Shown: piece after piece, positions 8,352-30,700 of the stretch | How the letters are laid out: every line of letters starts with the position of its first letter | Position numbering within the stretch: the first letter of the stretch is position 1 | Program-made: the position numbers and the translations under genes | Notes under the pieces: generated by a model | Databases searched by the model: none | What the model was told of the DNA's origin: nothing | The model's input: the letters and a program-made list of their open reading frames with translations, nothing else | Source: Planctomycetaceae bacterium | GTDB lineage: Bacteria > Planctomycetota > Planctomycetia > Planctomycetales > Planctomycetaceae | Length of the DNA stretch: 33,316 nt | Reading direction: 5' to 3' | Assembly (NCBI GenBank): GCA_020850695.1 | Contig: JADZEF010000119.1 | Span: 1 to 33,316, forward strand

Positions 8352-8545
8352 GCCAAGCGAAGAAGGGAGGGAGGCGCGGGAGCGGAAGTCGAACGGGCGC
8401 GTGCCGGAGGCCCGCCTGTTCGCACTGAAGCGACCCGCCGACCGGGTGAGCCGACGCACGTCTCAATTCCGATGTTGATTTGTTGGTCCGGATTCTCAAA
8501 GACGTGCAAACCGATTTCGAATTGAGTCCACGAGGAGTTGCCAGA

Positions 8546-10494: not shown

Positions 10495-10559
10495 AGACAC
10501 TGTCGTCCTGTACAAGAGCCTGATTCGGCCCGAGTCCCTGAATTCAGCAGGTAAACCGT

Positions 10560-10866
10560 ACGCGTTTGTGAGGAACACGTTCGACCGCTTCATGTCGCGA
10601 TGGACGAGCCCGAGCTTATGGGCCGCCGCGAGGCCGAGGGCCGCTTGGCGGACCAGCTCGCACGATTGCGGCACGGACTGGGAGCCTCGCTCTTCGATAA
10701 ACTTCAAGAGGTCAGTCCTGTTGATCCAGTCCATGACAAGGTAATGCAGTCCCAGGAACTCGCTGGCGTGCGTTGCCCGCACGACATGGGGGCTGTCGAC
10801 CTTGCCCACTGCTTCCACTTCCCGCTCGAAGCGCGCGACAAGCCCCGCGCGCCCAGGCTCCTGCAT
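10560..10866 (-). pseudogene. Ser/Thr protein kinase remnant (truncated at both ends)
   Basis: The minus-strand translation contains ARFEREVEAVGKVDSPHVVR, then LHYLVMDWINRTDLLKFIEE, then ELVRQAALGLAAAHKLGLVH and RDMKRSNVFLTN. These are the alpha-C to catalytic-loop portion of a Hanks-type kinase, including HRDxKxxN. They follow the kinase at 27763-32658 closely (FEREMEAVGRLDHPAIVRA and so on). The glycine loop and VALK lysine upstream are missing, and resemblance stops right after the catalytic loop, before any DFG. The sequence after that point runs into the 3' end of the caspase/SUMF1 gene on the other strand. It is a fragment and not a working kinase. Confidence 0.7.
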
Positions 10867-12419: not shown

Positions 12420-12601
12420 GTTGCCCCACCTGCCTAGACACGGACACCTGTAGGGTTTTTACAGCGAGGATTTGCCAATTGCAATGTGGCATTCACCGCC
12501 GCACACCGCGAAGAAGACGGTGCTCGCGGGTGTTGCTCCTCGCTTGCCGCGGCATTAGGCTCTTGTCGAGGAACCTCCCGAGTCCTTTTCCTGGCGGAAA
12601 T

Positions 12602-15600
12602 ATGATCTCTGTCCACGACTTCGCCGCTGCCCTCAATGCGGTCCGGCAAGGTTGCATCTCGCTCGACCAACTTGACGAAGTGGTTCGAACAGAACCATCG
12701 CTGGAATCGGGAATTGTGGACGCGTTGACTCGCCGAGGGCTACTGACGTCGCCGCAGGCCGAATCGCTGAGGTCGCAAGTCCAAGGCAGTCCATCGGCCG
12801 GCATTCGAACGGCCGAGGCTGAGTTGCGTACCGGGGGCTTTGATCCCGGCAATTCGCCGTCGATGCAGGACGTCGATGTTCGACAGATTCTTAACGCGCT
12901 CCTCGAGACCGAAGGGAGATTGGGACTCTCGAACACGGAAAATCGGGAGCGTTCGAACGGAGATTCTGCTTCTAGTTCGGCGCAGGGAGGTTCCCCATAC
13001 GACGACTGCCGCGGACGCTACTTGGTTAGAGAGACGATTGGCGCAGGAGGGATGGGCATCGTCTGGCGCGCGTTTGATCCTCTCCTGGGCCGGGACGTCG
13101 CACTCAAGGAGATTCGGACGGACAATTCCGATCGGGGGTTGCGACAGCTCCTGCGAATGGAAGCAAGGATGGCCAGTCACCTTGAACATCCTGGAATCGT
13201 GCCGATCTATGACGTCGCGGATGACGCGGAAGGAAACCCCTACTACGCGATGCGTCTGGTCGAAGGGGATCGACTGACTGATGCCATCCGAAGACTTCAC
13301 TCCCAGACGTCCGAATCCAGCGAGTTTGCATCGCAGAGGAACGGATTGCTGCGGCGGTTCTGCGCGGTGTGTCAAGCGGTCGCCTATGCCCACTCGCGGG
13401 GTGTCATCCATCGCGACATCAAATCGGCGAACATTGCCCTGGGCGCCTTTGACGACGTCCAAGTGCTGGATTGGGGACTGGCCCGCAAGGACGGCGTTTC
13501 TGTCGAAGGGGACACCGGCCAGGATGAACCGTCGCGGGCCCGACTCTATGACACGATGCCGGGAACGCGGAAGGGGACGCCGGCCTACATGGCTCCGGAG
13601 CAGGCGCTGGGGGACGTGGCTGAGATTGGTCCGCGGACCGACGTATATGGCCTCGGCGCTGTTCTTTATGAGATCCTGACTGGTCGGGAGCCCTTTCCGC
13701 GTCCGGATCTCTCACTCAAGTCAGAATCCACAGCCGACGCCGTGGAAGCCGTTTTCCGGCAGATCGTCGAAGAGGGGCCGCTTTCTCCCCGACGGGTTGG
13801 CCCGGCCGTTCCCGCAGCGCTCGAGGCAGTCTGCATGAAGGCCATGGCGCGAGCGCCGCAATCGAGATATGCCTCGCCAAGCGAGCTTGCGGCCGACGTG
13901 AGCGCCTGGATGGAAGACCGTCCCACGACGGCCTACGTCGATCCCTGGCGAACGCGCATGCGTCGATGGGCGTCTCGTCACCGGACTTTGGTTGCCAGCA
14001 CGGGCATTGGAAGCCTCGTGCTGATCGTGTCGCTGGCCGCCGGCATTGTGCTTCTGAACCGCTCTTACGCCTCCGAGCAGGCGGCCCGCGAAGATGCGGA
14101 CCAGCGACTGTTCGCCTCACAAATCAAGGTCGGTTTCGCCACCTGGGAAAAGGGGCAGGTCTCGGAGCTCAATTCGCTCCTCGAACGTCTCAGTACGAAC
14201 TCTTCCGAGACCGAAACCTCTCCATTCGAGTGGCATTGCCTCGACGCTCTGAGCCGGTCAAGCGAACTCAACTCGCTGCCCGGCAACCGGGGTGCCGTCG
14301 ATGCCCTGCTCGTTTCGAGAGATGGGACCCGCCTCGTAACCCTGTCGCAGGCCAAGGCTGCCCCCTCGGTGGTTGGTCGCTCGAGTGCGTCCGGCAAGTG
14401 CATTGCGGAAGTCTGGGACCTGCCGAATCGACGATTAATCGCTCGCAGTGATGAAGTCCCTGCCTCGGCATCCGCGGCGATGACACCGGATGGGACGGGG
14501 CTGTTGCTCGGCGGGATCGATGGAATCGTGCGGCGATGTTCGCTCGACGACCTTCAAACGTTTGAAACCTGGCCGGAGGTCACGGCACCGCTGGGGGGGC
14601 CGGGAAGTGCGATTTCTGCTTTGACGATCTCTCCCGATTTTGCGCGGGTCGGGATCGTGCGCGTCGATGGAAGCGTGGAAATCTATGATTGGGTTGCGGA
14701 GACGAGGATTGCGTCGAGTGCACCGATGGGAGCGGGCGGCGCTGTGGACTCGCGCGAATTCGGCATTGTCTGGACTGCGAATGACCAATATCTGGTGACC
14801 GATCGACGGAGCCGCGGTTGGTTTCATGCGCTTGATCCTCAGGCCGTCCGATCGGTCAATTTCGGGGAGATCGGCGCGGCTTGTCTTGATCTCTCCGCGG
14901 ATCTTCGGGAGTTGATCCTTGGGGGAAGCCACGGCCAGGTGGCACTGCGCGACGTCGACACGGGAAAGACTCGACGGACGCTTGAGTGCGGACGCGAGAT
15001 CGTGCAGGCGGTCCGATATTCCCCCAAGGGGAGTCGAATGGCGGCTGGAGGCGCCGATGGCATCGTGCGAGTGTGGTCCGGCGTCGAAGGGCGCCTTGTT
15101 GCCGAGTTTCGCGGACACCGTTCCAGCGTGCGATCGCTGATCTGGCTCACCGAGTCGACGCTGATCTCGGGCGGTTCGCAGGGGGAGATCATCCTTTGGG
15201 ACTTGAGCAGCCCTGTGGAACGAGAGATCGTCCAAGACCTCTCACGTACGGTCGCTGATCTTGTGGAACTGCCGGGACGAGGGCTGGCGGCCGTCGCTCT
15301 CGATTCCGATCTCCAGTCCGAAGAGCCAGGAGAGGTTGTGCTCCTCAACCTCGAGGACAAATCCAGAATTCCGTTGTCACTTTCCCATGGAGAATCGATC
15401 GGTTCCGTGGCCTGGTCTCCGGACGGGCGATGGCTGGCTACCGGCACGGACGGAGGGAGTCGCACGATGGCCGGTCGCGGCGAGTTCTGCATCTGGGACA
15501 GCGTCTCGGGCCGGCGGGTTCGAACGCTCGGACGATATGCCGGATTGGCGGGAGTGGTTGCCTTCTCGGCGGATGGACGGCATGTGATCGGAGTCCATGG

Positions 15601-17317
15601 AAACGTCATTCAGGGATCGGTGAGGGTCCGCGTCTGGGATACGGAGACATGGGATTCCTACGAACTTCCTGACGGTCCGCCAAGCGCGGGATTCATCTCC
15701 TACGCCGCCATCTCGCCGGACAGTCACTGGCTGGTGATGGGGACGATGTCGGTTTCGAATCCCACGGAACCGGGAACGCTGCTCGTCTGGGATCTGCGGA
15801 AACGTGTCTGGCATTCTTCCGGCACATCGCTCGCACAGAACGTCACCGCACTGCAGTTTTCGCCTGACGGACAGCAGGTGATTCTGTCGACCGGCCTGCT
15901 CGGGGATCCTGCGGCGATCGATGGAGCGATCGAGATCCGGTCGATCCCGGACTGTAAGCAGCTGTCTCGACTGCAGGATCGCGGAACCGGAGCCTGCTAT
16001 TGTGCGGCCATGTCCCCCGATCAGCGCCTGGCTGCGGGAGCATCGTTCGACGGCACAGTTCGGCTCTGGGATCTGGCGTCGAAGACCATCGTGCGAAAGG
16101 TGCCGGCGAGCCTCACGAAGAGCAACGAAGCAGCGACGCCGGCGAACTGGATCGATTTTGATCCGGAGGGGAAGTGGATCGCAATCTCGGCGACGGACGC
16201 CGTCACGGGAAAGCATCCCGCCGGAAGCGAACTTCGCATTGTCGAAGCGGCGACCGGACGAGTGGCCAGCACGCAAACCATTTCGTCGACCGTCTTCCAG
16301 TGCCTCTTTTCCACGGACGGCAAGAGCATCGCCCTGGCCGAGGGAGATCACGCGAACGTCAGCCGGATCACGCCGCAAGGAACGCTCGAGCCAGCTCAGA
16401 GCCCTGGCTATCCGAGGGGGAACCCCGCCAGCCATCAAGGGCGAGTCGGCGCTGTCGCCGCTTCTTCGGATGGAAAGTGGCTCGCCACTGGAGGTGAGGA
16501 CGAGGAGATTCGACTCTGGAAAGTCGACGAGGTGGTTCGAGACCCCGCACGATCGATCCCGTTGCGACTCAGGGGGCATTCCTCGTCGGTTTGCGATGCG
16601 TGCTTCAGTCCGGATTCGCGCTGGCTGGCGTCCGTTTCCGGAAGCCTGACGAACGCGGCCGTCGGGAAATCCCGAAACCGCGAACTGATTCTGTGGAGCA
16701 CCGCCGAACAGAAAGAGTCGACCCGCCTTCCGCTCGGGGATGCTCAGCTTTGCCGTCTTGCGTTTCTGGATGACGAACGTATCGCGGTCGCTGTCTCGTC
16801 CCCTCCCGCTCGACCGGGCGGCGGTTGCGAGGTTCACATTCTGGGTCTGCCGACATTGCACAAAATCGCACGGATTCGAGGACCGGATTTCGACTCCATT
16901 ACCTGTCTCGCCGCCCGCCGTGGCGGGAATGAACTCGCCTTTGGAGTCTTCGGCCGCCAGCTGTTCACCGCCCCGACCTCGGGAGCCGAACCGGCTCGCG
17001 AACTGGGAAGAATGTCGCAGATTCCCACCGCCATCACCTATTCGCCCGACGGACGGACGATTGCGGCGACAGGAAACCGAGGCGAGCTGGTGCTGTATGC
17101 GGCGGCCAGCCACCAGGAAATGCTGTCGATGCTGTTCCATCGGGAGGCGTTGCAGTGCGTGGCGTTCTCGGCGGACAGTCGGCAGTTGCTGCTGGGCGGG
17201 GCCGCTCCGAACGACTTCGGCGGCGAACTGCATCTCTGGCCGCGCCGGCCAGCGGCGTCCCCCTGGACCTTGCCGAACTTGAAAGAGCCGTCTCCCCTGG
17301 TGAGTCACGCTCCATGA
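12602..17317 (+). CDS. transmembrane Ser/Thr protein kinase with C-terminal WD40 repeats
   Basis: The protein has 1571 residues from the ATG at 12602 (GGCGGA upstream). The frame is open for 41 codons further, but those codons read as non-coding. Residues 1-60 form a small helical N-terminal region. The kinase domain spans about 140-440: glycine loop GAGGMG (147-152), VALK Lys169, Glu187, HRDIKSAN (His270, Asp272), and DWG at 290-292 in place of DFG. GTPAYMAPEQ marks the activation segment end. A membrane helix lies at about 463-486. The remainder, over 1000 residues, is a series of WD40-type blades (for example SPDGRWLATG, DGTVRLWDL, DGKWLATGGEDEEIRLWKV, SPDGRTIAATG), enough for about two beta-propellers. 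The kinase faces the cytoplasm and the propellers lie outside, by inference. Its stop overlaps the ECF sigma gene start, so both are likely one signalling unit. Confidence 0.9.
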   Translation: MISVHDFAAALNAVRQGCISLDQLDEVVRTEPSLESGIVDALTRRGLLTSPQAESLRSQVQGSPSAGIRTAEAELRTGGFDPGNSPSMQDVDVRQILNALLETEGRLGLSNTENRERSNGDSASSSAQGGSPYDDCRGRYLVRETIGAGGMGIVWRAFDPLLGRDVALKEIRTDNSDRGLRQLLRMEARMASHLEHPGIVPIYDVADDAEGNPYYAMRLVEGDRLTDAIRRLHSQTSESSEFASQRNGLLRRFCAVCQAVAYAHSRGVIHRDIKSANIALGAFDDVQVLDWGLARKDGVSVEGDTGQDEPSRARLYDTMPGTRKGTPAYMAPEQALGDVAEIGPRTDVYGLGAVLYEILTGREPFPRPDLSLKSESTADAVEAVFRQIVEEGPLSPRRVGPAVPAALEAVCMKAMARAPQSRYASPSELAADVSAWMEDRPTTAYVDPWRTRMRRWASRHRTLVASTGIGSLVLIVSLAAGIVLLNRSYASEQAAREDADQRLFASQIKVGFATWEKGQVSELNSLLERLSTNSSETETSPFEWHCLDALSRSSELNSLPGNRGAVDALLVSRDGTRLVTLSQAKAAPSVVGRSSASGKCIAEVWDLPNRRLIARSDEVPASASAAMTPDGTGLLLGGIDGIVRRCSLDDLQTFETWPEVTAPLGGPGSAISALTISPDFARVGIVRVDGSVEIYDWVAETRIASSAPMGAGGAVDSREFGIVWTANDQYLVTDRRSRGWFHALDPQAVRSVNFGEIGAACLDLSADLRELILGGSHGQVALRDVDTGKTRRTLECGREIVQAVRYSPKGSRMAAGGADGIVRVWSGVEGRLVAEFRGHRSSVRSLIWLTESTLISGGSQGEIILWDLSSPVEREIVQDLSRTVADLVELPGRGLAAVALDSDLQSEEPGEVVLLNLEDKSRIPLSLSHGESIGSVAWSPDGRWLATGTDGGSRTMAGRGEFCIWDSVSGRRVRTLGRYAGLAGVVAFSADGRHVIGVHGNVIQGSVRVRVWDTETWDSYELPDGPPSAGFISYAAISPDSHWLVMGTMSVSNPTEPGTLLVWDLRKRVWHSSGTSLAQNVTALQFSPDGQQVILSTGLLGDPAAIDGAIEIRSIPDCKQLSRLQDRGTGACYCAAMSPDQRLAAGASFDGTVRLWDLASKTIVRKVPASLTKSNEAATPANWIDFDPEGKWIAISATDAVTGKHPAGSELRIVEAATGRVASTQTISSTVFQCLFSTDGKSIALAEGDHANVSRITPQGTLEPAQSPGYPRGNPASHQGRVGAVAASSDGKWLATGGEDEEIRLWKVDEVVRDPARSIPLRLRGHSSSVCDACFSPDSRWLASVSGSLTNAAVGKSRNRELILWSTAEQKESTRLPLGDAQLCRLAFLDDERIAVAVSSPPARPGGGCEVHILGLPTLHKIARIRGPDFDSITCLAARRGGNELAFGVFGRQLFTAPTSGAEPARELGRMSQIPTAITYSPDGRTIAATGNRGELVLYAAASHQEMLSMLFHREALQCVAFSADSRQLLLGGAAPNDFGGELHLWPRRPAASPWTLPNLKEPSPLVSHAP

Positions 17318-19020: not shown

Positions 19021-19051
19021 AAAAACCGCGGCGGGACCTTTTCCGCCGCGG
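19021..19051 (-). terminator. intrinsic terminator of the lasso-peptide operon
   Basis: On the minus strand a perfect 9-bp stem CCGCGGCGG / CCGCCGCGG (arms at 19043-19051 and 19026-19034, 8-nt loop) is followed by TTTTT (19021-19025). It lies 27 bases after the stop of the last gene of the run and before the next DUF1559 gene. Confidence 0.85.
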
Positions 19052-19077
19052 GGCGCAGGGACAACGTCAGATGGATC

Positions 19078-19494
19078 TCATTGCACGGTTTTGATCGTCG
19101 CCTTGCGGTTCTTGCCCGAACTCTCCCAGTCTTTCTGCATGGAGACGGCTTTGTTCAGGTCGCGCATCGGTCCGACCTGTCCGCGCGTGATCCATTTGTC
19201 TTTCACACGCTCTTTGTAGATGACGAAGTAGGACGGAGCCGTCGTCACTTTGTAGGGGGCTTCGACCACCTTGGCTCCTCGTTCCTTCTTGTCCTTCAGC
19301 TCATTATCGAGCGCCTTTTCCGCTTCCGACTTGTAGCGAAAAGGGCCGCGAGTGATGTACTTGAGGGGCTGCGACGACTTCGTGAAGCTGATCTTGTAGT
19401 ACCATCCGGGTTCAGTCTGGGCCTGGCACGATTCCGCCTTCAGCGAGAGGAAAGCGGCCGACAGGGCGATCAGCAAAATGGCTCGACGCGACAT
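19078..19494 (-). CDS. small secreted protein with a duplicated ITRG motif
   Basis: The protein has 138 residues from the ATG at 19494, which follows GGAG at good spacing. The open frame continues 59 codons upstream, but the signal peptide MSRRAILLIALSAAFLSLKA (cut near CQAQ) fixes this start. The mature part is basic and holds two similar halves: YITRGPFRYKSEAEKAL and WITRGQVGPMRDLNKAV, each followed by a charged helix. This looks like an internal duplication of a beta-alpha unit, loosely like SPOR-type repeats, but I do not recognise the family. It is the last gene before a strong terminator, 192 bp after the lasso cyclase stop, so it is probably read with the lasso operon. Binding or immunity outside the cytoplasm is possible but unproven. 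Confidence 0.7.
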   Translation of the reverse strand: MSRRAILLIALSAAFLSLKAESCQAQTEPGWYYKISFTKSSQPLKYITRGPFRYKSEAEKALDNELKDKKERGAKVVEAPYKVTTAPSYFVIYKERVKDKWITRGQVGPMRDLNKAVSMQKDWESSGKNRKATIKTVQ

Positions 19495-19686
19495 GGAACG
19501 TGTCTCCAGAGGGGAATCCTGGGCAGGCGGCCGCGTGCGTCTCGCACAACTGTTGAATCGCCGCTGCTCGATATCCCTCATGCTCACGTCCCCGGTTTGT
19601 TCCGCGACTTCCCGCAATTTTCGAAAGATCGCCGAACGAACCCGACCGATGGTTTCGCGGACGGTCCTCACTCCGCTCAGCGAGAG

Positions 19687-21381
19687 TCACCGGCCTGGAA
19701 ACTGCTTGGACCAGGCGATCATGGCCAACGACAGATTCAGGCGAGCCCCGATCACCGCATCGCCGATTCCGCCGGCGTGCTCGCGAACACAATCTTTCAG
19801 CATCCGGCGGTCGAAGATCTCGTCGAGCGGACTCTCCTCGTCCAGCCACGCGGACAGGCGGCTCAGATTCGCCGACAGACCGGCCGAATAGGCGTCGTTG
19901 AAGGAAATCTTGACCATTCGCGTCCGGATGACTTCCGGAAGGGCCGACCCCATGGCCGCGGCGAGCAGAGGCTTACGCACGCCCGGCGTCCGCTTGTATT
20001 GTTGCGGCACGCTCAGCGCCCACGAGAGGACGCGGGTGTCCAGAAACGGTCTGGAAACCGACAAGCCACAATCCTGCCCCAGATGCCACGCACCCCAGTC
20101 GCCCGCAGCCCGATTCAGGCTCTCCAGATCGGCGGCCCAACGCAGGGACGCTCCCTTCGGCACGTGACCAACACGGCGTCCCCGAGCTTTGAGGTCATGC
20201 CGACTCGCGAAGTCCTTTCGAATCCATGGAGGCACGTCGGCGTCGCGGCGCGATGGCAGAAGGGGTTTCACCGCGAGTTCCCGGAACACACTCCAGGGGT
20301 TCCGCAGCGTGGCACGAGCATAGCCCTGCGCCCGCCGGAACGCCGCTCGCACATCTCCTCGTCTCAGCAATTCCGCCACTTCGCGCGGAGGTCCCTCAAG
20401 AAACTCATCGGCCCCTGCGCCCGTCAGCAGCACCGTTGCGCCGGCTCGCGCGGCCGATTCCAGCAGAGTTCGTTCCGCCGCGATCCGAAACAAGCCGGCA
20501 TGCGGTTCGCCGTGACGCGGCAGCGCCCGCCGAAACCAGTCAAAGTCGAGCGTGGTCTGGCCGTCGATCAGAATTCCCTGTGCCCGGGGCAGCACCTCCG
20601 CCACCGTCCGGAGATAGGGGGTTTCGACTTCAAGCGCATTGCCTTGATAGACCAGAGACGTTGTCACGAGCGAGTCGGCCGACTTGTCCGCCAGAATCGC
20701 AATCGTTGAGGAGTCCATCCCTCCCGACAAGGTCACTGCGGCGCGGTGGCCTCGGCAGCGAATTGCCACGGCCTCCGTCAAACGGGACTTCAGTTCGTCT
20801 GCGGATTCTTCGAACGAAGTCCTGGCCGCGTCCGGATCGATCCGTGTCTCCCAGTCCCACCAGCGTTCGCGGCGCGGCTCGTTCCGAAGCGAGAGCGTCA
20901 CCGTAGTGCCGGGCCGGACGCGTGAGACCCGCTCCCAGGCGGTCGCTTCCGACGGGATTTCCGAGAAGCCCCCGGGGAACGCAAGCATGTCGGCGAGGAA
21001 CTCGCCGTTGACCCGGAGTTCGCCGTCGCAGGCCTCCCGGGCGGACGTCGCGACGCGCCAGCCGCCGCGCAACGTCCGCGCGTAGAACAGCGGAACGGCT
21101 CCCAGGGGGTCACGGGCCAGCAGCAGGTTGCCGTTGCGGCCATCCCAGACGACGGCTGCGTACTCGCCATAACAGTCGAGCGCTGCAGGGCCGATCCTCC
21201 GATAGGTTGTGCCGAGCGACTCTGAGGTCGAGCTTGCGGCAGGTTCCGAATCGAAGAGTCGGCCAATGACGTAGACAGTCACCAGACCGTCACTCCAGCA
21301 ACTCGCGGCGCGAAAATCTGCCGGACTTACCACGTGCACAGAGCCGTCGACCTGCAATTCAATCACGAGATTCTGCGGCAT
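19687..21381 (-). CDS. lasso cyclase, asparagine synthase-like (C protein)
   Basis: The protein has 564 residues from the ATG at 21381, which overlaps the B gene by 23 bp. A longer frame to 21477 lies fully inside B. The N-terminal part resembles the class II amidotransferase fold (LDCYGEYAAVVWDGRNGNLL, then ARDPLGAVPLFY), but the N-terminal catalytic Cys is absent (MPQN), as expected for lasso cyclases that do not hydrolyse glutamine. The ATP-binding PP-loop is SGGMDSS at residues 219-225, and LLTGAGADEFLEG matches the later nucleotide-site motif of the family. Family knowledge says this enzyme adenylates a side-chain carboxylate of the core peptide and closes an isopeptide ring with the N-terminal amine. 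Its place directly after precursor and B gene supports this over plain asparagine synthesis. Confidence 0.85.
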   Translation of the reverse strand: MPQNLVIELQVDGSVHVVSPADFRAASCWSDGLVTVYVIGRLFDSEPAASSTSESLGTTYRRIGPAALDCYGEYAAVVWDGRNGNLLLARDPLGAVPLFYARTLRGGWRVATSAREACDGELRVNGEFLADMLAFPGGFSEIPSEATAWERVSRVRPGTTVTLSLRNEPRRERWWDWETRIDPDAARTSFEESADELKSRLTEAVAIRCRGHRAAVTLSGGMDSSTIAILADKSADSLVTTSLVYQGNALEVETPYLRTVAEVLPRAQGILIDGQTTLDFDWFRRALPRHGEPHAGLFRIAAERTLLESAARAGATVLLTGAGADEFLEGPPREVAELLRRGDVRAAFRRAQGYARATLRNPWSVFRELAVKPLLPSRRDADVPPWIRKDFASRHDLKARGRRVGHVPKGASLRWAADLESLNRAAGDWGAWHLGQDCGLSVSRPFLDTRVLSWALSVPQQYKRTPGVRKPLLAAAMGSALPEVIRTRMVKISFNDAYSAGLSANLSRLSAWLDEESPLDEIFDRRMLKDCVREHAGGIGDAVIGARLNLSLAMIAWSKQFPGR

Positions 21382-22147
21382 GACCTCGAGGCCTTTCCCA
21401 CTGAGCAACGACCCGGAACTGGCGGCACACGTCGACGACGTCTCCGACGACGAATCCATTTGTTTCCACCCAGGCATGGGCCAGGAATGGCGAGGGCGAG
21501 ACCCCGACGAAGACCGTGGCGTCGAACCCCGCGGCTCTCAGGAGCAGCATTCCTGTCAGCGCGCGTTCCTTGCAGGAGACGGGGAGCGAAAAGTAGCGGC
21601 ACGAGCCATCCAGAATCGCCTCGTGAATCCCTTCGAGCGGAAGGATGCGCGGCACCGAAACGAGGACGCTCCAGCGCCGCTGCGTCGAAACGAAACCCTC
21701 CGCACGCACCGCCACCCACGCCAGTGACAGCAGCAGATTCACGGAACGTTGGAGACTCAACCAGGAGGACCGAACGACGAGCGACGCCAGACTCGCGCAG
21801 AGCCATCCGAGGGAAGCCGGAATGCGCTGAATCGCATTCCGGCGAAGCAAGCCTCTCTCCACGAGTTGCTCATCCCGCAGTCGGCTCTGGAGCGCCTGCA
21901 CGTCGCTGTTGGCCAGATCGCGGGAGATCCCGTATCTCGACACCAGGAACTCCACGGCGGCGGCCGAGCCCCCTTGAGCGGCGGCCTCCACGATCTCGCC
22001 CGCACATCCTTCGAGTTTGAAGAAGCCTCGATCGAGATCGCAGAGATAGCTGCCGACCGGCGTCCGGGAAAGGACGACGGCCGGCCCCAGCCGCCATCGG
22101 ATCGCAACCAGATCAGAAGCCGTCGAAATAGTACTGGCTCGGGCCAT
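21359..22147 (-). CDS. lasso-peptide B protein: PqqD-like RRE fused to B2 transglutaminase-like peptidase
   Basis: The protein has 262 residues from the ATG at 22147, preceded by GGAAAGG. It overlaps the precursor gene by 35 bp. Residues of about 12-100 are a PqqD-like RiPP recognition element (VAIRWRLGPAVVLSRTP, then LCDLDRGFFKLEGCAGEIVE), which binds the leader peptide. Residues of about 110-262 are the B2 domain, a transglutaminase-like cysteine protease: Cys192 in SCKERALTGMLLLRAAG, His225 in AHAWVETNG and Asp236 in VVGDVVD form the expected triad. The family removes the leader so that the cyclase can act. RRE and peptidase are in one chain, as in proteobacterial B proteins. Many actinobacterial systems have them as separate B1 and B2. 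The assignment is strong because cyclase and precursor are adjacent. Confidence 0.85.
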   Translation of the reverse strand: MARASTISTASDLVAIRWRLGPAVVLSRTPVGSYLCDLDRGFFKLEGCAGEIVEAAAQGGSAAAVEFLVSRYGISRDLANSDVQALQSRLRDEQLVERGLLRRNAIQRIPASLGWLCASLASLVVRSSWLSLQRSVNLLLSLAWVAVRAEGFVSTQRRWSVLVSVPRILPLEGIHEAILDGSCRYFSLPVSCKERALTGMLLLRAAGFDATVFVGVSPSPFLAHAWVETNGFVVGDVVDVCRQFRVVAQWERPRGHAAESRD

Positions 22148-22322
22148 CGTAGACCTTTCCAGAATAGTTGCCCTGGAGCCGGTCCAGGTCGCCGAGGGCG
22201 CGGACTTCCGGAGACCGATACTCCGAATTCCCGGCGGAGGAGGCCGGCCCCCCTGCAGAGGACAAGGGATCCGGCTGTTCGCTCCCGCTTCGCACACCGA
22301 ATGGACTGCTGACTTCGATCAT
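22113..22322 (-). CDS. lasso-peptide precursor (A peptide)
   Basis: The peptide has 69 residues. Its ATG at 22322 follows GGGAG at good spacing and lies 4 bp after the AAA+ ATPase stop. The leader contains YRSPEV (residues 35-40), matching the YxxPxL/V motif bound by lasso RRE proteins, then RALGDLDRLQ. The proposed core is GNYSGKVYDGPSQYYFDGF (residues 51-69): Gly1 would be joined to the side chain of Asp9, giving a nine-residue ring and a ten-residue tail rich in aromatics. The conserved Thr two places before the core is Leu here. If Gln50 is instead taken as the Thr equivalent, the core would start at Asn52 with an eight-residue ring, which is less usual. The reading is based on position and motifs. 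No product is known. Confidence 0.8.
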   Translation of the reverse strand: MIEVSSPFGVRSGSEQPDPLSSAGGPASSAGNSEYRSPEVRALGDLDRLQGNYSGKVYDGPSQYYFDGF

Positions 22323-22326
22323 CGCG

Positions 22327-23301
22327 TCACTCCCAGGAATGTTGCCGGGGCGCTGAGGCCATGGGTCCGACGACGTGCGCCCGCTGGACGTCATCGATGG
22401 CTTCGAAAAGTTCTGTCGTTGAGATTTCGGCCTGCTCGCCTGGCCGATCGGCCGCTTCGTAGAGCGCGTGGAGCGCGGCGTTCCGGATTTCACGTCCGAC
22501 AAGACCCTCCGAACGCTGTGCCAGTTCGTCCCAGGGAAGCCGGCCCCGTCCGGGCACTTCGAGGGGAACGTACATCTCCCATAGCTTCCGTCGTCCCGCC
22601 GCATCGGGCGGGAGAATCTCCATATGCAGAGGAATGCGCGACATGAACGCCGGGTCATAGTTCGACAAGAGATTGGTCGTGAAAATCACGACTCCCGTGC
22701 AGGCTTCGAGTTCGGTCAGCATCGTGGCCCGTGCCACGTTGACCGCATGGTCGGCGGAGTTGGTGACGTCCGACAGCCGTTTGCCGAGGATCGCGTCGGC
22801 CTCATCGAAAATGAGGACGGCTTCCGTATGTCTCGCCGCCATGAACGCCGCCGCGATGTTCCGCGACGTGCCTCCCGGATACCGCGACTCGATCTCCTCG
22901 TACTTCACGGCGATCAGGTGGCGACCCAACCGGGCGGCGATGGCTTCGCCCGTCAGGCTCTTGCCGACGCCGGGGGGGCCGTAGAGATTGACGATCGTCC
23001 GTCCTCCCGCGGGATCGACCTTGGCGAATTTCCAGTCTTCGTAAACGCGACGACGGACGCGAATCGACTTCAGAGCCCGGTCGATGCGGCGACCCGTCTC
23101 GGCGTTCAGGATCACCCCTTCCGGCGCGACGCGGGCCGGGCGAGGCGGAAACCGCTCCATCAACTCGCCAAGATCCATCGCGGGCCGCTCGGGATCTGAC
23201 GGCTTGCGGACCGGTTCCGGCGCCGGACGCTCACCGTTATTGCGGCGCGTCGATCGCGCCCAGGATTGATCTGCGGGAATGGGCTGGCCCAGAGTGAACA
23301 T
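22327..23301 (-). CDS. AAA+ ATPase, directly upstream of the lasso precursor
   Basis: The protein has 324 residues, and AGGAG precedes its ATG. Residues 1-60 are a proline- and charge-rich tail without clear fold. The AAA+ core follows: Walker A GPPGVGKS (108-115), Walker B VLIFDEAD (162-169), a sensor 1 candidate Asn210 (FTTN) and an arginine-finger candidate Arg222 (MSRI). The C-terminal helical lid contains GLVGREIRNAALHALYEAAD. This resembles the FtsH/spastin/CbbX-type clade of single-domain AAA+ proteins, which form hexamers that remodel or unfold protein partners. There is no protease domain. The 4-bp gap to the precursor gene shows they share a transcript. Its partner could be the M48 peptidase or one of the small membrane proteins, by inference only. 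Confidence 0.82.
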   Translation of the reverse strand: MFTLGQPIPADQSWARSTRRNNGERPAPEPVRKPSDPERPAMDLGELMERFPPRPARVAPEGVILNAETGRRIDRALKSIRVRRRVYEDWKFAKVDPAGGRTIVNLYGPPGVGKSLTGEAIAARLGRHLIAVKYEEIESRYPGGTSRNIAAAFMAARHTEAVLIFDEADAILGKRLSDVTNSADHAVNVARATMLTELEACTGVVIFTTNLLSNYDPAFMSRIPLHMEILPPDAAGRRKLWEMYVPLEVPGRGRLPWDELAQRSEGLVGREIRNAALHALYEAADRPGEQAEISTTELFEAIDDVQRAHVVGPMASAPRQHSWE

Positions 23302-23327
23302 GCGAGTCTCCTGCGAATGGTCAAGAG

Positions 23328-23732
23328 TCAGAATTGGATCAGAACGAGTTCGCTGCCTTTGCGAACGCCGGGTTGGACACGCTTCAGGTCATCCGTCGAA
23401 ACTTCGCAGTCCGTTTCAATCACATTCCGCAGGCCGTCATGGCCGACGGCTTCCAGTCGCACCCGCGAGACCTGCTGAATCTTCGCCGCGGTCCGGTCGG
23501 CAAGCCGGACCACGACAGCGACGATATGCGAGAGCGAGAGATGCCGGTTCTGCTGAATCCAGGGCTGGATGTGACGGTCATTGACGACATGCCACCAGTC
23601 CCAGAGCGGGGTCCCCGTCAGCCGCTCGACAATTCCCTTTCCCGTGGCCATCTCGACGCCCTTGTCGAGAAGAATCGCGCCGGCGACGGCTCCCGCCAGC
23701 GCGGCTAATGCTTGAAACAGTCCGCCAATCAT
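23328..23732 (-). CDS. small membrane-anchored protein of the lasso operon, unknown family
   Basis: The protein has 134 residues, and GAGGA lies before the ATG. The first 25 residues (MIGGLFQALAALAGAVAGAI, then LL) are an N-terminal membrane segment or uncleaved signal. The rest is a soluble domain of about 110 residues with HLSLSHIVAVVVRLADRTA, then VSRVRLEAVGHDGLRNVIET and a basic end. I recognise no family. The gene sits 26 bp upstream of the AAA+ ATPase and 30 bp downstream of the next small protein gene, so it is part of the same transcript. Unlike its three upstream neighbours, it lacks the [WY]E[QR]xPxxxR motif. It may be an assembly partner at the membrane. Confidence 0.6.
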   Translation of the reverse strand: MIGGLFQALAALAGAVAGAILLDKGVEMATGKGIVERLTGTPLWDWWHVVNDRHIQPWIQQNRHLSLSHIVAVVVRLADRTAAKIQQVSRVRLEAVGHDGLRNVIETDCEVSTDDLKRVQPGVRKGSELVLIQF

Positions 23733-23762
23733 GGGTCGATCCTCGAAAAAAACAGGCGGGAT

Positions 23763-24212
23763 TCAGAAATGCGCCGGTGCGGCGGCGTCGTAGACGACCC
23801 ACACATGTCGATCGTTTTCCGACGCGAGCCACCGCTCACGGATCGGCTGCGGAAGGCGCTCGTAGCCGATGTCTCGCGTGCAGCTCGACTGACGAAGCCC
23901 GTTCGCCGATTGCAGCCAGACATGCGTCGTCAGCCGCCTCATCGAAGGCCGCTGGTGTCGGGCCACTTCACATTCGACGCGGACCAGCATGCGCAGCGAA
24001 TCGTCGTGTGCATCGCCGGCGAGTCGCCGTTCGAGCATCCCTCGCAGTTGTTCCCGCGGCATCGCCACATGCGGGCGGAGCACGGTTTCCACGTCGGCGA
24101 TAATCTCATGAAAGAACGACTCGTCGTTCCGGCGTTCAGAACGCCGCCACCAGCATCGGGCGGCATAGCCCGCGGCCGCCGCCGCGGTCAGGAGAAACAA
24201 TTTGTCGGCCAT
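23763..24212 (-). CDS. small membrane-anchored protein with the operon's shared C-terminal motif
   Basis: The protein has 149 residues. GGAG precedes the ATG with a 6-base gap. A short N-terminal hydrophobic segment (MADKLFLLTAAAAAGYAARC) is followed by basic residues, which suggests an anchor with the rest in the cytoplasm. The soluble part has a helical stretch (FFHEIIADVETVLRPHVAMP, then REQLRGMLERRL), then a beta-rich end with THVWLQSANG and IGYERLPQPIRERWLASEN. The last piece matches the pattern seen at the C-terminus of the M48 peptidase and of the next upstream protein. No known family was recognised. Position and spacing (44 bp and 30 bp to its neighbours) place it in the lasso operon. 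Confidence 0.6.
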   Translation of the reverse strand: MADKLFLLTAAAAAGYAARCWWRRSERRNDESFFHEIIADVETVLRPHVAMPREQLRGMLERRLAGDAHDDSLRMLVRVECEVARHQRPSMRRLTTHVWLQSANGLRQSSCTRDIGYERLPQPIRERWLASENDRHVWVVYDAAAPAHF

Positions 24213-24256
24213 TGGAAGCTCCAGACAATGAAGGGAAGAAATCAGGAAGAGGGACT

Positions 24257-24757
24257 TCAGTTGGCGGTCTCGAGGACAAGGCTCTGCTCGTTGGCCCGGT
24301 CCTTGATGGAGTTCAAGAGGGACTCCTTCACATCGACTTCTGCGGTGTCCTTGCCCTGACGCACCATCTCGTCACGGACTCTTTCCGGAACCTGTTCCCA
24401 GGGGACCTCGTACTCTTCCGTTCGCACCCGCTGCTTGCCCGACTCGCGGTCGAGGAGATGGACCTGCCGCTTTTCCAGGTAGGACGTTGCCGACGTCTTG
24501 GAATAGGTGCTCTTCATCTTCAGGACCGACCCGGTCACCATTTTCCAGGCGCCGACGATGGCTCGACGCGAGGCGCAGGCCGGCTTGTCGACCCAGACGA
24601 GAAGCTTGGCGAAGGCGTCTCCGACGGAATTGCCGAGACACCGGCGGATGAAGGGAATGGCGCTTTTCGAGCACCAGTCGACGAGGTAGGGCCAGAAGAT
24701 TGACCCGAGAACCATCCCGAGAATCGTTCCTACAACGGCCACGGTGAAGGGATCCAT
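24257..24757 (-). CDS. membrane protein with the operon's shared C-terminal motif
   Basis: The protein has 166 residues from the ATG at 24757, which is preceded by GGAG with an 8-base gap. The frame continues to 24808, but without a good site. Residues 1-25 (MDPFTVAVVGTILGMVLGSI, then FWPYL) are a membrane span. A second mildly hydrophobic stretch with paired cysteines and basic residues follows to about residue 75. The C-terminal region has YLEKRQVHLLDRESGKQRVR, then YEVPWEQVPERVRDEMVRQG, and the latter matches the ends of the M48 peptidase (AWEQIPQCLREEMIHTGED) and the 149-residue neighbour. I do not know the family. It lies 78 bp after the M48 gene and 44 bp before the next, in the same run. 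Confidence 0.65.
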   Translation of the reverse strand: MDPFTVAVVGTILGMVLGSIFWPYLVDWCSKSAIPFIRRCLGNSVGDAFAKLLVWVDKPACASRRAIVGAWKMVTGSVLKMKSTYSKTSATSYLEKRQVHLLDRESGKQRVRTEEYEVPWEQVPERVRDEMVRQGKDTAEVDVKESLLNSIKDRANEQSLVLETAN

Positions 24758-24835
24758 CGTGAAGCTCCAGATTTTGGGAGAAGAAGTGACGGGAGATGTG
24801 AGGGTCAAAGTGATGCGTGGCGAACCCGCCAGACG

Positions 24836-26134
24836 TCAGGCGATCGCGCGGCTCGAACCGTTGGATTCGTAAAGCTTCCGGACGATGCGGTCCTCGCCGG
24901 TGTGGATCATTTCTTCGCGCAGGCACTGCGGGATCTGCTCCCACGCACCGTCGCAGGGAACGGGAATCCGCATTCCCGACAGTCGATTTCCATTGACGAA
25001 CTGCGCGTGGACCACGATCTCCAGTTCGGCTGCCGAGATCTTGTTGCAGTGCAGCTCGATCCGGCGGATCGCATCGAGCGGAGAACCGTTCGGGCGCTCC
25101 CCGGCATAGACCATGCGTCGAACCTGACGTCCGGCCTCGCGAAGCGGCACGTGAAATCGTTCGCCGGCCCACCGCGCCGTCGCCGTACAGGAGACGGTCG
25201 CCAGTTGCTGCACGGCGGGGTCCTCAGCCACCCATTCCGCCATGCGGTCCCGCTCCTCGGGAGACGCTTCGACAAGTTCGTCGAGGCACCCGTCCGAGAC
25301 CCAGCTGTTCAGCTCCGCTGCCCGCAACACCCAGTGCGGGTGCGTCATCAACAGGTTGTCCTGCGCATCCAGCAACCGGTAGACGACACTCCGATCTCGC
25401 TCGTCTTCGTAGGCCTCCGCCTGTTTGAGCAAGGCGTCCGAATCCAACTCGTGGAATAACCGGAAGGGAATGCCGGCGAGCTTTGTCATCGCGCGGAGCG
25501 CGGCCTTTTCGTCCTGGCACGCGAGCAACCCGGCCCGGTCCGCCGTAAACTCGCTTCGTCGCATCCAGGAGTACAGGACCGGCCCTAGGGTTGCGGTGGC
25601 CAGCATCCCTCCCAGCCCGAGGGTGAACTTTGAAAACTGTTCAGCACAATAGCGCAACTGCTGGCCCAGCGAGTGATAGACCGTGTGGCCGCACTGGAAG
25701 TGCCCGAGTTCGTGTCCGATGACGAATCGGAGCTCGTCGTCGGTCAGGAGGTCGACGCACCCTGTCGTCACGACGACCAGCGGCTGATCCGCTCCGGTCG
25801 TGTAAGCGTTCGCTCCGCCACTGACGACATAAAGTGGCGGAAGAGATTCCAGGTTCAGCGTCTCCGCGGCTTCCCGTGCGAGGCGATAAAGAGTCGGAAG
25901 GCAGCTCTCGGTCACCCGCACTCCATTGGCGAGCAATTGGAGTCGGTGAAGCCTGGCGTGATGGTCGACAAACCACGACACGAGCTTGTCCAACCCGGGG
26001 ATGGCGCCGAGCGTTGCCAGGTAGGAACGATCGGTGGGATGCTGGTAAACCAGCGGCTTGAGGCCGCGAAGCAGGGTTCGATCCGCGTTGGCCTGAGCCT
26101 CGGTGCAAGAAATTACGTCAAAGGTTGCGGGCAT
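24836..26134 (-). CDS. M48-family zinc metallopeptidase, first gene of the lasso operon
   Basis: The protein has 432 residues, with GGAG nine bases before its ATG. The zinc site is HELGH at 141-145 (VIGHELGHFQCGH), with Glu195 in SEFTADRAG as the likely third ligand, as in M48/HtpX-type peptidases. A hydrophobic segment lies at about 170-190 (FTLGLGGMLATATLGPVLYS). N-terminal to the site, TLNLESLPPLYVVSGGANAY fits the family's substrate strand. The last 130 residues are an added domain that ends in AWEQIPQCLREEMIHTGED, the motif shared with two downstream small proteins. It opens a run of nine genes that includes the lasso A, B and C genes. A part in maturation, immunity or quality control of the product is possible but not shown. 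Confidence 0.82.
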   Translation of the reverse strand: MPATFDVISCTEAQANADRTLLRGLKPLVYQHPTDRSYLATLGAIPGLDKLVSWFVDHHARLHRLQLLANGVRVTESCLPTLYRLAREAAETLNLESLPPLYVVSGGANAYTTGADQPLVVVTTGCVDLLTDDELRFVIGHELGHFQCGHTVYHSLGQQLRYCAEQFSKFTLGLGGMLATATLGPVLYSWMRRSEFTADRAGLLACQDEKAALRAMTKLAGIPFRLFHELDSDALLKQAEAYEDERDRSVVYRLLDAQDNLLMTHPHWVLRAAELNSWVSDGCLDELVEASPEERDRMAEWVAEDPAVQQLATVSCTATARWAGERFHVPLREAGRQVRRMVYAGERPNGSPLDAIRRIELHCNKISAAELEIVVHAQFVNGNRLSGMRIPVPCDGAWEQIPQCLREEMIHTGEDRIVRKLYESNGSSRAIA

Positions 26135-27062: not shown

Positions 27063-27626
27063 ATGCTCACTACGTCCATCCACTTACTGGAGCGGATGAC
27101 GCAGCCGGATGATCAGCCCGCTTGGGAACGGTTCGTCTCTCTCTACTCCCCGCTGATTTTTCGCTGGGGAATAACGGCCGGACTGTGTTCCGATGAGGCT
27201 TTTGATCTGGTTCAGGACGTGTTCGTCGTTCTGGTTCAGGAGCTTCCGTCGTTTCGATACGACCCGGAACGGGGAAAATTCCGATCGTGGCTCAAGGCGT
27301 TGGCGACTCGGCAGCTGTCGACGTTCCGCTCGCGCAGGACCCGCGAGGCCGGCTTGATCGGCGCTCAACACGATCTCGCCGACTCCACGGCCGATGCTGC
27401 CCTGTGGGAAGAAGACGAATACCGCGAGTACCTGGTGCGGCGGGCGTTGGCCATCATGCAGTCGGATTTTGAGGAGCTCACATGGCGGGCGTGCTGGCTG
27501 CACACGGTCAGCGGCCGCACCGCCGCCGAGGTGGGACGGGAATTAGGCATGACCGAGGGGGCCGTGTATGTCGCGAAAGGGCGGGTGCTGCGGCGTTTGC
27601 GCGAGGAACTGAACGGCCTGCTGTAG
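27063..27626 (+). CDS. ECF-type RNA polymerase sigma factor
   Basis: The protein has 187 residues. Region 2 is clear: PAWERFVSLYSPLIFRWGIT, then EAFDLVQDVFVVLVQELPSF and RYDPERGKFRSWLKALATRQ, the standard planctomycete ECF pattern. Region 4 follows with LTWRACWLHTVSGRTAAEVG and RELGMTEGAVYVAKGRVLRR, a helix-turn-helix for the -35 element. No strong binding site is seen before the ATG. The gene lies 136 bp upstream of a giant kinase whose first residues hold an anti-sigma-type zinc motif, so the pair probably forms a sigma/regulator unit. Which promoters it reads is unknown. Confidence 0.88.
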   Translation: MLTTSIHLLERMTQPDDQPAWERFVSLYSPLIFRWGITAGLCSDEAFDLVQDVFVVLVQELPSFRYDPERGKFRSWLKALATRQLSTFRSRRTREAGLIGAQHDLADSTADAALWEEDEYREYLVRRALAIMQSDFEELTWRACWLHTVSGRTAAEVGRELGMTEGAVYVAKGRVLRRLREELNGLL

Positions 27627-27701
27627 TGACGGACGGGCGGCGGACGAAATCTTCGAAAATCTCGCAAGATTTCTGTTGGGATTCGAGTCTGATGCCCCCA
27701 T

Positions 27702-27763
27702 AGGAGGTGAACTTCTTGCGATCCCACTTCCTTCAGGCCGTTTGCCGGACCCGAGAAACGTGA
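27702..27763 (+). promoter_or_regulatory. strong Shine-Dalgarno with a possible 15-codon leader peptide
   Basis: AGGAGGTGA (27702-27710) is the strongest ribosome binding site seen in the window, yet the kinase ATG is 53 bases away. Eight bases after AGGAGG a TTG (27716) opens a 15-codon frame (MRSHFLQAVCRTRET) whose TGA (27761-27763) overlaps the kinase start as TGATG. Coupled translation through a leader is one reading. A non-standard start for the kinase is another. Confidence 0.35.
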
Positions 27764-30700
27764 TGAACCCCACAAACTGCCTGTCCGAAGAGGTGCTGGA
27801 AGCGCTGCTGACCGGCTCCTTGCCGGAGTCCGAAGCGGGCCCCCACGAAGCCCATCTAACGGAATGCACCGTGTGTGCCCAGCGGACGCGGAATCTGCGG
27901 ACTTCTGACACGCTGGCGAATCTGCTGCCTCGGGCTCGCAACGTCCGCTGGACCGACGCGGACGATGCGGTCGCCCGACAGCTGGTCTCTCGACTTTCCA
28001 ATCGATCGCAGCTCCTGGCTCGCTCCGTTGTGGCGGAGGAAGTCCGCATGGCATCTGTTCCTCACCGCAGCGATTCTTCCGAAGTCGCGCCTGCAGCCGC
28101 CGCGCCGGATGCTGTGTTGCCCGGGCTGACCTCGTCCCTCACTCCGTCTGAGCCCACCGTCACACTTCTCTCAAAAGAACACTCGGCACCGTCCCTCACG
28201 TCGCACACCATCCTTCTGCAACCGGCTGAAGGGATGCAACTGGGTGTTTACAGGCTCGAGAAAAAGCTGGGCGAAGGGGGGATGGGCGCCGTGTGGAAGG
28301 CATTCCACGCCAAACTTAAGAAATACGTCGCATTGAAGGTTCTGCCGGCCCATCTGCTGCGAGATGCCAAGCTGGTCAGTCGATTTGAACGCGAGATGGA
28401 GGCTGTCGGCCGGCTCGATCATCCGGCGATTGTGCGGGCGATGGATGCGGGAGAGGTGCAGGGAACTCACTACCTGGTGATGGAGTACGTCGACGGGCAG
28501 GATCTCGGACAGTTGGTGGAGACTAAAGGGGCCCGCTCGGTGCGGGACGCCTGCGAGATCATCAGGCAGGCGGCAGTGGGTCTGGCCTACGCTCACACGA
28601 ACGGGCTCGTCCATCGCGACATCAAGCCGTCGAACCTGTTTCTCACGAAAGACGGGAAGGTCAAGATTCTCGACCTAGGGCTGGCGCGGCTTCAGGGGGA
28701 CAACCTCGCGGCCGATCCGGGGGCGGGGCTGACGGGCACCGGCCAGGTGCTAGGGACGCCCGACTACATGGCCCCCGAGCAGTGGGAGAACACGCACACG
28801 GTCGGCCCGGCCTGCGACCTCTATGCCCTCGGCTGCACGCTATTCTATCTGCTGACCGGCCGCGCCCCCTTCGGGGACGACAGGCATCAGACGCTGCCGA
28901 AGAAGATGATGGGTCATGTCCACGAGACACCCCCCGAGTTGTCCGCGGTGCGGGGAACTCTGATGGCCCGGGCGAAGAAACCGTCCGGAAGCCCGGCAGG
29001 CGAAGCATTGTCACCGCCCCACGATATTCCACCCGAGGTCGAGGCGGTCTACCAGCGGCTGCTGTCCAAGGAGCCGTCCGAGCGGTTCGCGTCCGCCGAG
29101 CAACTGGCCACTGCGCTGCTGGCCATTATCAAGGCAAAGAAGCCCGTCGCCCCGAGCAACGCGTCCCTCGATCTGGCGACCGGCCCGACCCCCGCCGAGG
29201 ACGCATCGCAGGCCCCCACCGTCCGGGCCGAAAAGCCGCAATCGGCAACTCCGTCGGCAAGCCGGCCGGCAGGCCCACCCACCCCGCCCGCCCGCAAGAA
29301 ATGGCTGGCGTGGGGAAGCCTCGGTGCGGTACTGCTGCTGGGCGTGATCATCATCACGATCCGGCACAAGGACGGGACGACGTCGAAGCATGAAGTCGAC
29401 GACTCGGCCGAAGTCAGCATCACTCGTAAACCCGGCGTCGCAGGATCTGATTCTGGCCCTCAACCCTCAACCAATAACCCTCAACCCGCCGCCGGCTGGC
29501 ATGGTTGGCCCGCCAATGCTCCAAAGCCCGCCATCGCCCCATTCGACGCCGCCCAGGCAAAGCGGCATCAGGAAGAGTGGGCGAAGTATCTCAACGTGCC
29601 GGTCGAGTACACGAACTCGCTCGGCATGAAATTCGTGCTGATCCCGCCGGGTGAGTTCACGATGGGCAGCACACCCAAAGAGATTGACGCGGCGTTCAAG
29701 GAAGCTGACCCGAACAACAAAGTCTGGATCGACCGAATTAAGTCGGAAGCCCCTCGGCACACGGTGATCCTCACGCAGCCGGTCTACCTGGGAGCGACCG
29801 AAGTGACGCAGGCGGAATATGAAAATGTGATCGGGAAGAATCCCTCTCATTTCTCTCCGGGAGGACCGGGAAAAGCGGCGGTTGCCGGAATCGAGACCGC
29901 CGAGCATCCGGTAGAGAAGGTGACTTGGAATGACGCAGCGGAGTTCTGCGCCCGGTTGAGCACGCGGGAGCAATTCAAACCGTCGACCGGCTACCGGTTA
30001 CCCAGTGAGGCGGAATGGGAGTTTGCGTGCCGGGCAGGAACGACCACGATGTTCTGGAAAGGGGATCGCGACGAAGATCTCGCTGAAGCGGGTTGGTTTC
30101 ATCGCAATTCCGGTGATCGGACGCATGCCGTGGGTGAACTAGAAGCCAATCCGTTCGGGCTGTTCGACATTCACGGCAATGTCGGGGAATGGGTGCAGGA
30201 TGCCTGGGACGCGACATGGTATGGCCAGTTCCAAGAGAAGCCCGCCATTGATCCGGTAAGCCCGTTTTCCGCCGGTGCCCGGCGTGTGATCCGGGGCGGC
30301 AGTTGGGGCAACTCCGCGTCCCTTTGCCGGTCGTCGAACCGCAACGCCCTTATTCCGACTGGTTACCACGACGGTGGATTCCGCGTGTCGCTGCCGGTCG
30401 ACGCCGTGCGGCAGGCGTTGAAGGTGGAGGGGCCGGCGATTCCAAAGCCGACCGCTGCGGTGTCCGTCCCTCGACCCTCATCTCTCGACCCTCGTCCCTC
30501 CTCTTGGCACGGCTGGCCGGCCGACGCACCGAAACCCGCCATCGCCCCGTTCGACGCCGCCCACGCAAAGCGGCATCAGGAAGAGTGGGCGAAGTATCTC
30601 AACGTGCCGGTCGAGTACACGAACTCCCTCGGCATGAAGTTTCGGTTGATCCCGCCGGGCGAGTACATACGAGGCAGCACGCCGCAGGAAATCGAACAGA

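What the first reader, a model, noticed from the sequence alone, without database searches (positions are those of the whole stretch)
19021..26134. A complete lasso-peptide locus in a planctomycete, embedded in a nine-gene operon
Precursor, RRE-B2 fusion and lasso cyclase are adjacent and overlapping in the order A-B-C. They share one compact run with an M48 peptidase, three small proteins, an AAA+ ATPase and a small secreted protein, and the run ends at a perfect-stem terminator with a T tract. All inter-gene gaps from the M48 gene to the cyclase are under 80 bp or negative. Lasso loci with this gene set are not ones I recognise. The A, B and C calls rest on visible motifs. The link to the other genes rests on spacing and shared sequence.
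Basis: partly seen in the sequence, partly recalled or inferred. Interest (0 to 1): 0.9.

Follow-up and report, generated by a model that had tools for sequence, protein, structure and literature searches.

The report
Lasso-peptide genes behind a protease–ATPase module
A planctomycete carries genes that very probably make a knotted "lasso" peptide, transcribed behind a separate, conserved set of protease, ATPase and small probably membrane-bound proteins that elsewhere sits alone or in front of an unrelated antibiotic-type gene cluster.

Summary
On the minus strand, 19021-26134 carries M48 peptidase, three small proteins, AAA+ ATPase, lasso precursor (A), RRE-B2 leader peptidase (B), lasso cyclase (C) and a secreted protein. 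M48-to-C gaps are 78, 44, 30, 26, 4, -35 and -23 bp; a 9-bp GC stem plus T5 follows. A, B and C have a homologous set on a Nostoc plasmid; C groups with lasso cyclases. Both precursors lack the leader Thr(-2) present in all eight other precursors compared, and no exporter is in the run. The five upstream genes are a separate module: M48-sm1-sm2-sm3-AAA recurs in the same order in two other planctomycetes without lasso genes, once before two unknown genes, once before radical-SAM/NRPS genes. An AAA-sm1 pair occurs on Moraxella and Comamonas plasmids. M48's tail, sm1 and sm2 share a domain with no clear match in solved structures. So the lasso call is supported, but 'one nine-gene lasso system' is not: the upstream genes do not track A-B-C, and the secreted gene is doubtful. 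Best reading: a lasso cluster with a Thr(-2)-less leader, appended to a poorly described AAA+/M48 module that may protect or serve producers of unrelated compounds.

The parts
24836..26134 (-). M48 (HtpX-like) metallopeptidase, 432 aa, zinc motif GHELGH and downstream Glu intact, C-terminal domain shared with sm1/sm2
   Evidence: Pfam PF01435 1.1e-24; 41% identical to G211 copy; alignment of three copies
24257..24757 (-). sm1: small protein with N-terminal hydrophobic helix and C-terminal shared domain, 166 aa
   Evidence: hydropathy; homologues in G211, G677 and next to AAA on Moraxella/Comamonas plasmids
23763..24212 (-). sm2: small protein with the shared beta-beta-beta-alpha-beta domain, 149 aa
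   Evidence: AlphaFold model pLDDT 81; HHalign to M48 tail 93-94%
23328..23732 (-). sm3: small protein with N-terminal hydrophobic helix, 134 aa
   Evidence: hydropathy; positional homologues in G211 and G677; not shown to share the sm1/sm2 domain
22327..23301 (-). AAA+ ATPase, IetA-like, Walker A and B intact, 324 aa
   Evidence: PF00004 1.6e-22; PADLOC IetA 1.5e-21; alignment
22113..22322 (-). A: lasso precursor, 69 aa; leader YRSPEVRALGDLDRL-Q, core (G)NYSGKVYDGPSQYYFDGF
   Evidence: sequence; homologous Nostoc precursor; register comparison
21359..22147 (-). B: RRE (PqqD-like) fused to B2 leader peptidase, 262 aa, Cys192/His224/Asp236
19687..21381 (-). C: lasso cyclase (asparagine-synthetase-like), 564 aa, no N-terminal catalytic Cys
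19078..19494 (-). small secreted protein, 138 aa; membership in the operon doubtful
   Evidence: 192 bp after C; paralogue elsewhere in the genome with no lasso genes
19026..19051 (-). intrinsic-terminator-like hairpin with T5

Best explanation
Two functional units share one probable transcript. Unit 1 (22327-26134) is a stand-alone accessory module: an M48 metallopeptidase, three small probably membrane-associated proteins and an IetA-like AAA+ ATPase. Unit 2 (19687-22322) is a lasso-peptide cluster: the RRE of B binds the YxxP leader of A, B's Cys-His-Asp site cuts off the leader, and C uses ATP to join the new N-terminus to the Asp of the core (Asp9 if the core starts at Gly, Asp8 if it starts at Asn), trapping the tail. 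With no exporter or immunity gene in the run, the most likely link is that Unit 1 protects the producer or handles the product at the membrane, and is not a maturation enzyme set. Shown: genes, families, spacing, homologous A/B/C set, independent recurrence of Unit 1. Inferred: co-transcription, cyclisation, and Unit 1's role, which is the weakest step (about 0.35 for self-protection or export, 0.3 for a conflict system with the lasso peptide as payload).
For: Unit 2: NF033537 over cut-off; RRE matches TfuB1 of 6JX3, E 1.5e-4; Nostoc plasmid encodes C (35.6%, 3e-86), RRE-B2 (7e-12) and an unannotated homologous precursor sharing Y..P, Q, acid-G-P and SQ-aromatic; C groups with B2-linked cyclases, 95/98 support, and is separated from the AsnB rows by a weaker branch. 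Unit 1: same five-gene order in G211 and G677 without A-B-C; absent from a genus-mate of G211. G677 copy lies just upstream of radical-SAM and NRPS genes on the same strand. AAA-A gap 4 bp.
Against: No transcript, peptide or mass data. The operon is seen in one genome only. C scores below every curated lasso cut-off. Leader lacks Thr(-2). Module copies without biosynthetic genes (G211, plasmids) show that it does not need a product to protect. M48 zinc ligands are lost in the G677 copy, so proteolysis may not be its general function.
Confidence: 0.5

Rival explanations
1. Conflict-system reading: the M48-sm-AAA genes are a phage-defence or stress-response module and the lasso peptide is its effector, made or released when the module is triggered.
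For: AAA is closest to IetA in PADLOC; relatives lie in a phage scaffold and a Paraburkholderia plasmid beside ZorA/ZorB-like genes, beside a WYL regulator at the end of phage Mcat5, and on small toxin-antitoxin-carrying plasmids; patchy distribution; caspase-domain and kinase genes in the same window.
Against: IetA score is far below the curated level for the real system (78 vs 510 bits); no S8 peptidase partner; no lasso peptide is known to me to act as an intracellular effector; Unit 1 elsewhere precedes NRPS genes.
Confidence: 0.3
2. Chance neighbours: A-B-C inserted behind an unrelated operon and merely uses its promoter; no functional link.
For: Only one genome has the combination; module and lasso genes occur apart everywhere else looked at.
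Against: 4-bp AAA-A gap and overlapping A/B/C; two of three planctomycete module copies directly precede biosynthetic genes (small sample).
Confidence: 0.3
3. A-B-C does not make a threaded lasso but another leader-cleaved macrolactam or a linear peptide.
For: No Thr(-2); C below curated lasso cut-offs; threading cannot be judged from sequence.
Against: Acid residue at the right core position in both the window and Nostoc precursors; B and C families; C grouping.
Confidence: 0.12

Closest known systems
Lasso peptide biosynthesis (A, B1/B2 or fused B, C; e.g. fusilassin/TfuB1, microcin J25)
   Same: YxxP leader, RRE plus B2 peptidase, asparagine-synthetase-like cyclase, Asp at core position 8 or 9
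   Different: Leader has Gln (or Leu) where Thr(-2) was found in all previously reported precursors per PMC10368454, which itself reports Ile(-2); no transporter in the run; five extra upstream genes
Nostoc sp. ATCC 53789 plasmid lasso locus (NZ_CP046704)
   Same: RRE-B2 fusion, closest C, homologous Thr-less precursor
   Different: B precedes A, a pentapeptide-repeat gene separates A and C, an ABC transporter is nearby, no M48-AAA module
IetAS anti-phage system
   Same: AAA+ ATPase of IetA type beside a peptidase gene
   Different: peptidase is M48, not subtilisin-type; AAA scores 78 bits against a 510-bit cut-off; three small proteins added
HtpX-type M48 membrane peptidases
   Same: HExxH and distal Glu, M48 core
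   Different: far below HtpX cut-offs; extra C-terminal domain shared with neighbours; no strong transmembrane segment by hydropathy; catalytic residues lost in one copy
AAA-sm1 cassettes on Moraxella osloensis and Comamonas plasmids
   Same: AAA next to an sm1 homologue and further small proteins
   Different: AAA first, no M48, no biosynthetic genes

Membership tests
Lasso peptide cluster | B2-type leader peptidase with Cys-His-Asp | tested here: met
   NF033537 54.7 bits over cut-off 33; C192, H224, D236 conserved with Nostoc
Lasso peptide cluster | RRE recognising a YxxP leader | tested here: met
   PqqD PF05402 over cut-off, 6JX3 TfuB1 match; leader YRSP
Lasso peptide cluster | Lasso-type cyclase C | tested here: inconclusive
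   best NCBIfam model is a lasso-type macrolactam cyclase but below cut-off; groups with B2-linked cyclases, 95/98; split from AsnB less well supported, 83/91
Lasso peptide cluster | Acidic residue at core position 7-9 | tested here: met
   Asp8 or Asp9 depending on cut site; Glu at the same place in Nostoc
Lasso peptide cluster | Thr at leader position -2 (usual, not strictly required: Ile/Val exceptions are published, PMC10368454) | tested here: not met
   Gln at that register in window and Nostoc, Thr in eight other precursors
Lasso peptide cluster | Threaded macrolactam product | not testable with these tools
   needs chemistry
IetAS defence system | IetA ATPase at curated score | tested here: not met
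   78 vs 510 bits
IetAS defence system | Adjacent subtilisin-type IetS | tested here: not met
   only M48 in the run
HtpX equivalog | score above HtpX cut-off | tested here: not met
   42.7 vs 369 bits

The most novel reading that the evidence does not exclude
M48-sm1-sm2-sm3-AAA is an undescribed, general accessory module that producers of chemically unrelated natural products place in front of their biosynthetic genes, built round a small beta-beta-beta-alpha-beta domain shared by the peptidase tail and the small membrane proteins, and acting in self-protection, export or triggered release.
Probability: 0.25. Interest if true: 0.8.

Novelty: new variant of a known kind. Interest (0 to 1): 0.6.

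Why it matters
It gives a lasso cluster from a little-studied phylum, with a leader that breaks the Thr(-2) rule in the same way in a planctomycete and a cyanobacterium, so a second recognition code for leader removal can be tested. The upstream module, found before lasso genes in one genome and radical-SAM/NRPS genes in another, would be a handle on how producers tolerate or release such compounds when no exporter gene is at hand.

Tried and rejected
Transfer of the operon as a unit: no relative of B in 98 relatives and only generic AAA in 120 family genomes; the three weak hits are in large proteins of other loci, one beside tail-sheath genes. AAA or small proteins beside other planctomycete lasso loci: none. 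Other M48 relatives as module members: twelve loci fetched, no AAA. Phage-borne copies in IMG/VR of B or M48: none by pattern scan, a weak test. Gemmatimonadota search for the AAA: nothing, uninformative. Fold match for the sm2 domain: Foldseek best E 0.13, VIA best Z 4.2, no usable match; this does not show a new fold. Planktothrix, Synechococcus and Streptomyces small proteins beside the AAA look alike in layout but do not align with sm1-3. sm3 as a member of the shared domain: not supported. Rfam, tRNA: none.

Full report
Anatomy. The window is a whole contig (C121) of an 8.6-Mb draft genome. Nine minus-strand genes run from 26134 to 19078: M48, sm1, sm2, sm3, AAA, A, B, C and a secreted protein. 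M48 to C is compact: gaps 78, 44, 30, 26 and 4 bp, then overlaps of 35 and 23 bp. The secreted gene starts 192 bp after C and is followed by a hairpin with T5. No sigma-70-type promoter was found in the region, which says little in a planctomycete.

The lasso genes. B is an RRE fused to a B2 peptidase: PqqD and Transglut_core3 in Pfam, lasso_biosyn_B2 above cut-off, and TfuB1 of PDB 6JX3 as the best solved RRE relative. C is an asparagine-synthetase-like protein without the N-terminal Cys of the glutaminase site; its best NCBIfam model is a lasso-type macrolactam cyclase, below cut-off. The nearest relatives of B and C found on plasmids lie together on a Nostoc plasmid. Between B and C there, an unannotated ORF encodes a precursor homologous to A. 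In a tree, window C groups with the Nostoc and a Streptomyces cyclase, both beside lasso B2 genes (95/98 support), while two AsnB rows fall elsewhere; the branch that separates the two sides has 83/91 support and several rows are long. Together this makes a lasso product likely, about 0.85; threading is not testable here.

The leader. In the window and Nostoc precursors position 16 is Gln and there is no Thr. Either Gln replaces Thr(-2) and the core starts NYSG (ring to Asp8), or one residue is missing and the core starts GNYSG (ring to Asp9, Leu at -2). I cannot decide between them. PMC10368454 states that Thr(-2) was found in all previously reported precursors and describes Ile(-2) as the first validated exception, so this is a further variant of a known theme.

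The upstream module. The same five genes in the same order occur in G211 (M48 41%, AAA 46% identical) and G677 (with two sm1 copies), planctomycetes of other families. Neither has A-B-C in the stretch read. G211's copy is followed by two unknown small genes. G677's copy is followed on the same strand by a radical-SAM protein, a second radical-SAM protein and NRPS adenylation, carrier and condensation domains. The AAA was found at this closeness in 2 of 392 sampled phylum genomes and 2 of 378 class genomes, own genome included in each count, and is missing from a genus-mate of G211. With n = 3, the module's placing before biosynthetic genes is suggestive only.

Shared domain. The C-terminus of M48, sm1 and sm2 share a domain: profile comparison gives 94% probability for M48 tail-sm2 and for sm1-sm2 and 42% for M48 tail-sm1 (two-sequence profiles gave 93, 84 and 56). 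AlphaFold gives beta-beta-beta-alpha-beta for sm2 at good confidence and the same order of elements for the M48 tail at low confidence. No solved structure matched convincingly. Proteins next to an AAA relative on Moraxella and Comamonas plasmids match sm1 (93%), so AAA-sm1 is wider than the M48 or lasso link. The M48 zinc site is intact in the window and G211 but lost in G677 (HExxH to RExxH, distal Glu to Ala).

Context of the ATPase. Its PADLOC match is IetA, but it is far under the curated NCBIfam level. Relatives lie beside ZorA/ZorB-like genes, beside a WYL regulator in phage Mcat5, on small plasmids, and in a Lactobacillus plasmid run with an AMP-binding enzyme and a hydrolase. This favours an accessory, mobile, conflict-type family, but membership of IetAS was tested and not met.

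Verdict. The lasso call stands. The claim of one lasso system of nine genes does not: five genes are an independent module and the ninth is doubtful. How the module serves the lasso peptide, if it does, is open; I lean to producer protection or membrane handling over a payload role, without strong evidence for either.

Limits. Genome searches were sampled; the only broad genome-collection scan with B found one weak relative; cyanobacterial genomes beyond plasmids could not be searched.

Noticed in passing
window 8480-10744 (+): Caspase-domain protein (Peptidase_C14) followed 12 bp later by an FGE-sulfatase-domain protein; a pairing of types seen in bacterial conflict systems.
   Followed up: no
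window 12479-17317 and 27063-32658 (+): Ser/Thr kinase-WD40 fusion, and an ECF-type sigma factor next to a kinase with three FGE-sulfatase stretches.
   Followed up: no
L153:12510-14396: G677 M48 homologue has lost zinc ligands (RELGH, Glu to Ala): a probable pseudo-peptidase kept in the module.
   Followed up: partly
L111:10323-10502: Unannotated lasso precursor on Nostoc sp. ATCC 53789 plasmid, between B and a pentapeptide-repeat gene.
   Followed up: yes
L145:5755-10927 and L074:5416-10346: IetA-like AAA, a ~420-aa protein, a ZorA-like and a ZorB-like protein in a row, in a phage scaffold and a Paraburkholderia plasmid: a possible Zorya-like variant.
   Followed up: partly
L043:10347-11211 and L048:8989-9944: Tandem precursors beside lasso-type B2 genes with leader ...LTG and a core starting Gln without an acid at 7-9: perhaps not lasso peptides.
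   Followed up: no
L058, L060, L062, L064, L065: Precursor-like ORFs with a doubled EPKLT motif (FAEPKLTFIEPKLTKHGDATKIT) beside B2 genes in several planctomycete genomes.
   Followed up: no
L141:9409-9939: Paralogue of the window's secreted protein in the same genome, after a kinase gene and with no lasso genes on its contig.
   Followed up: partly
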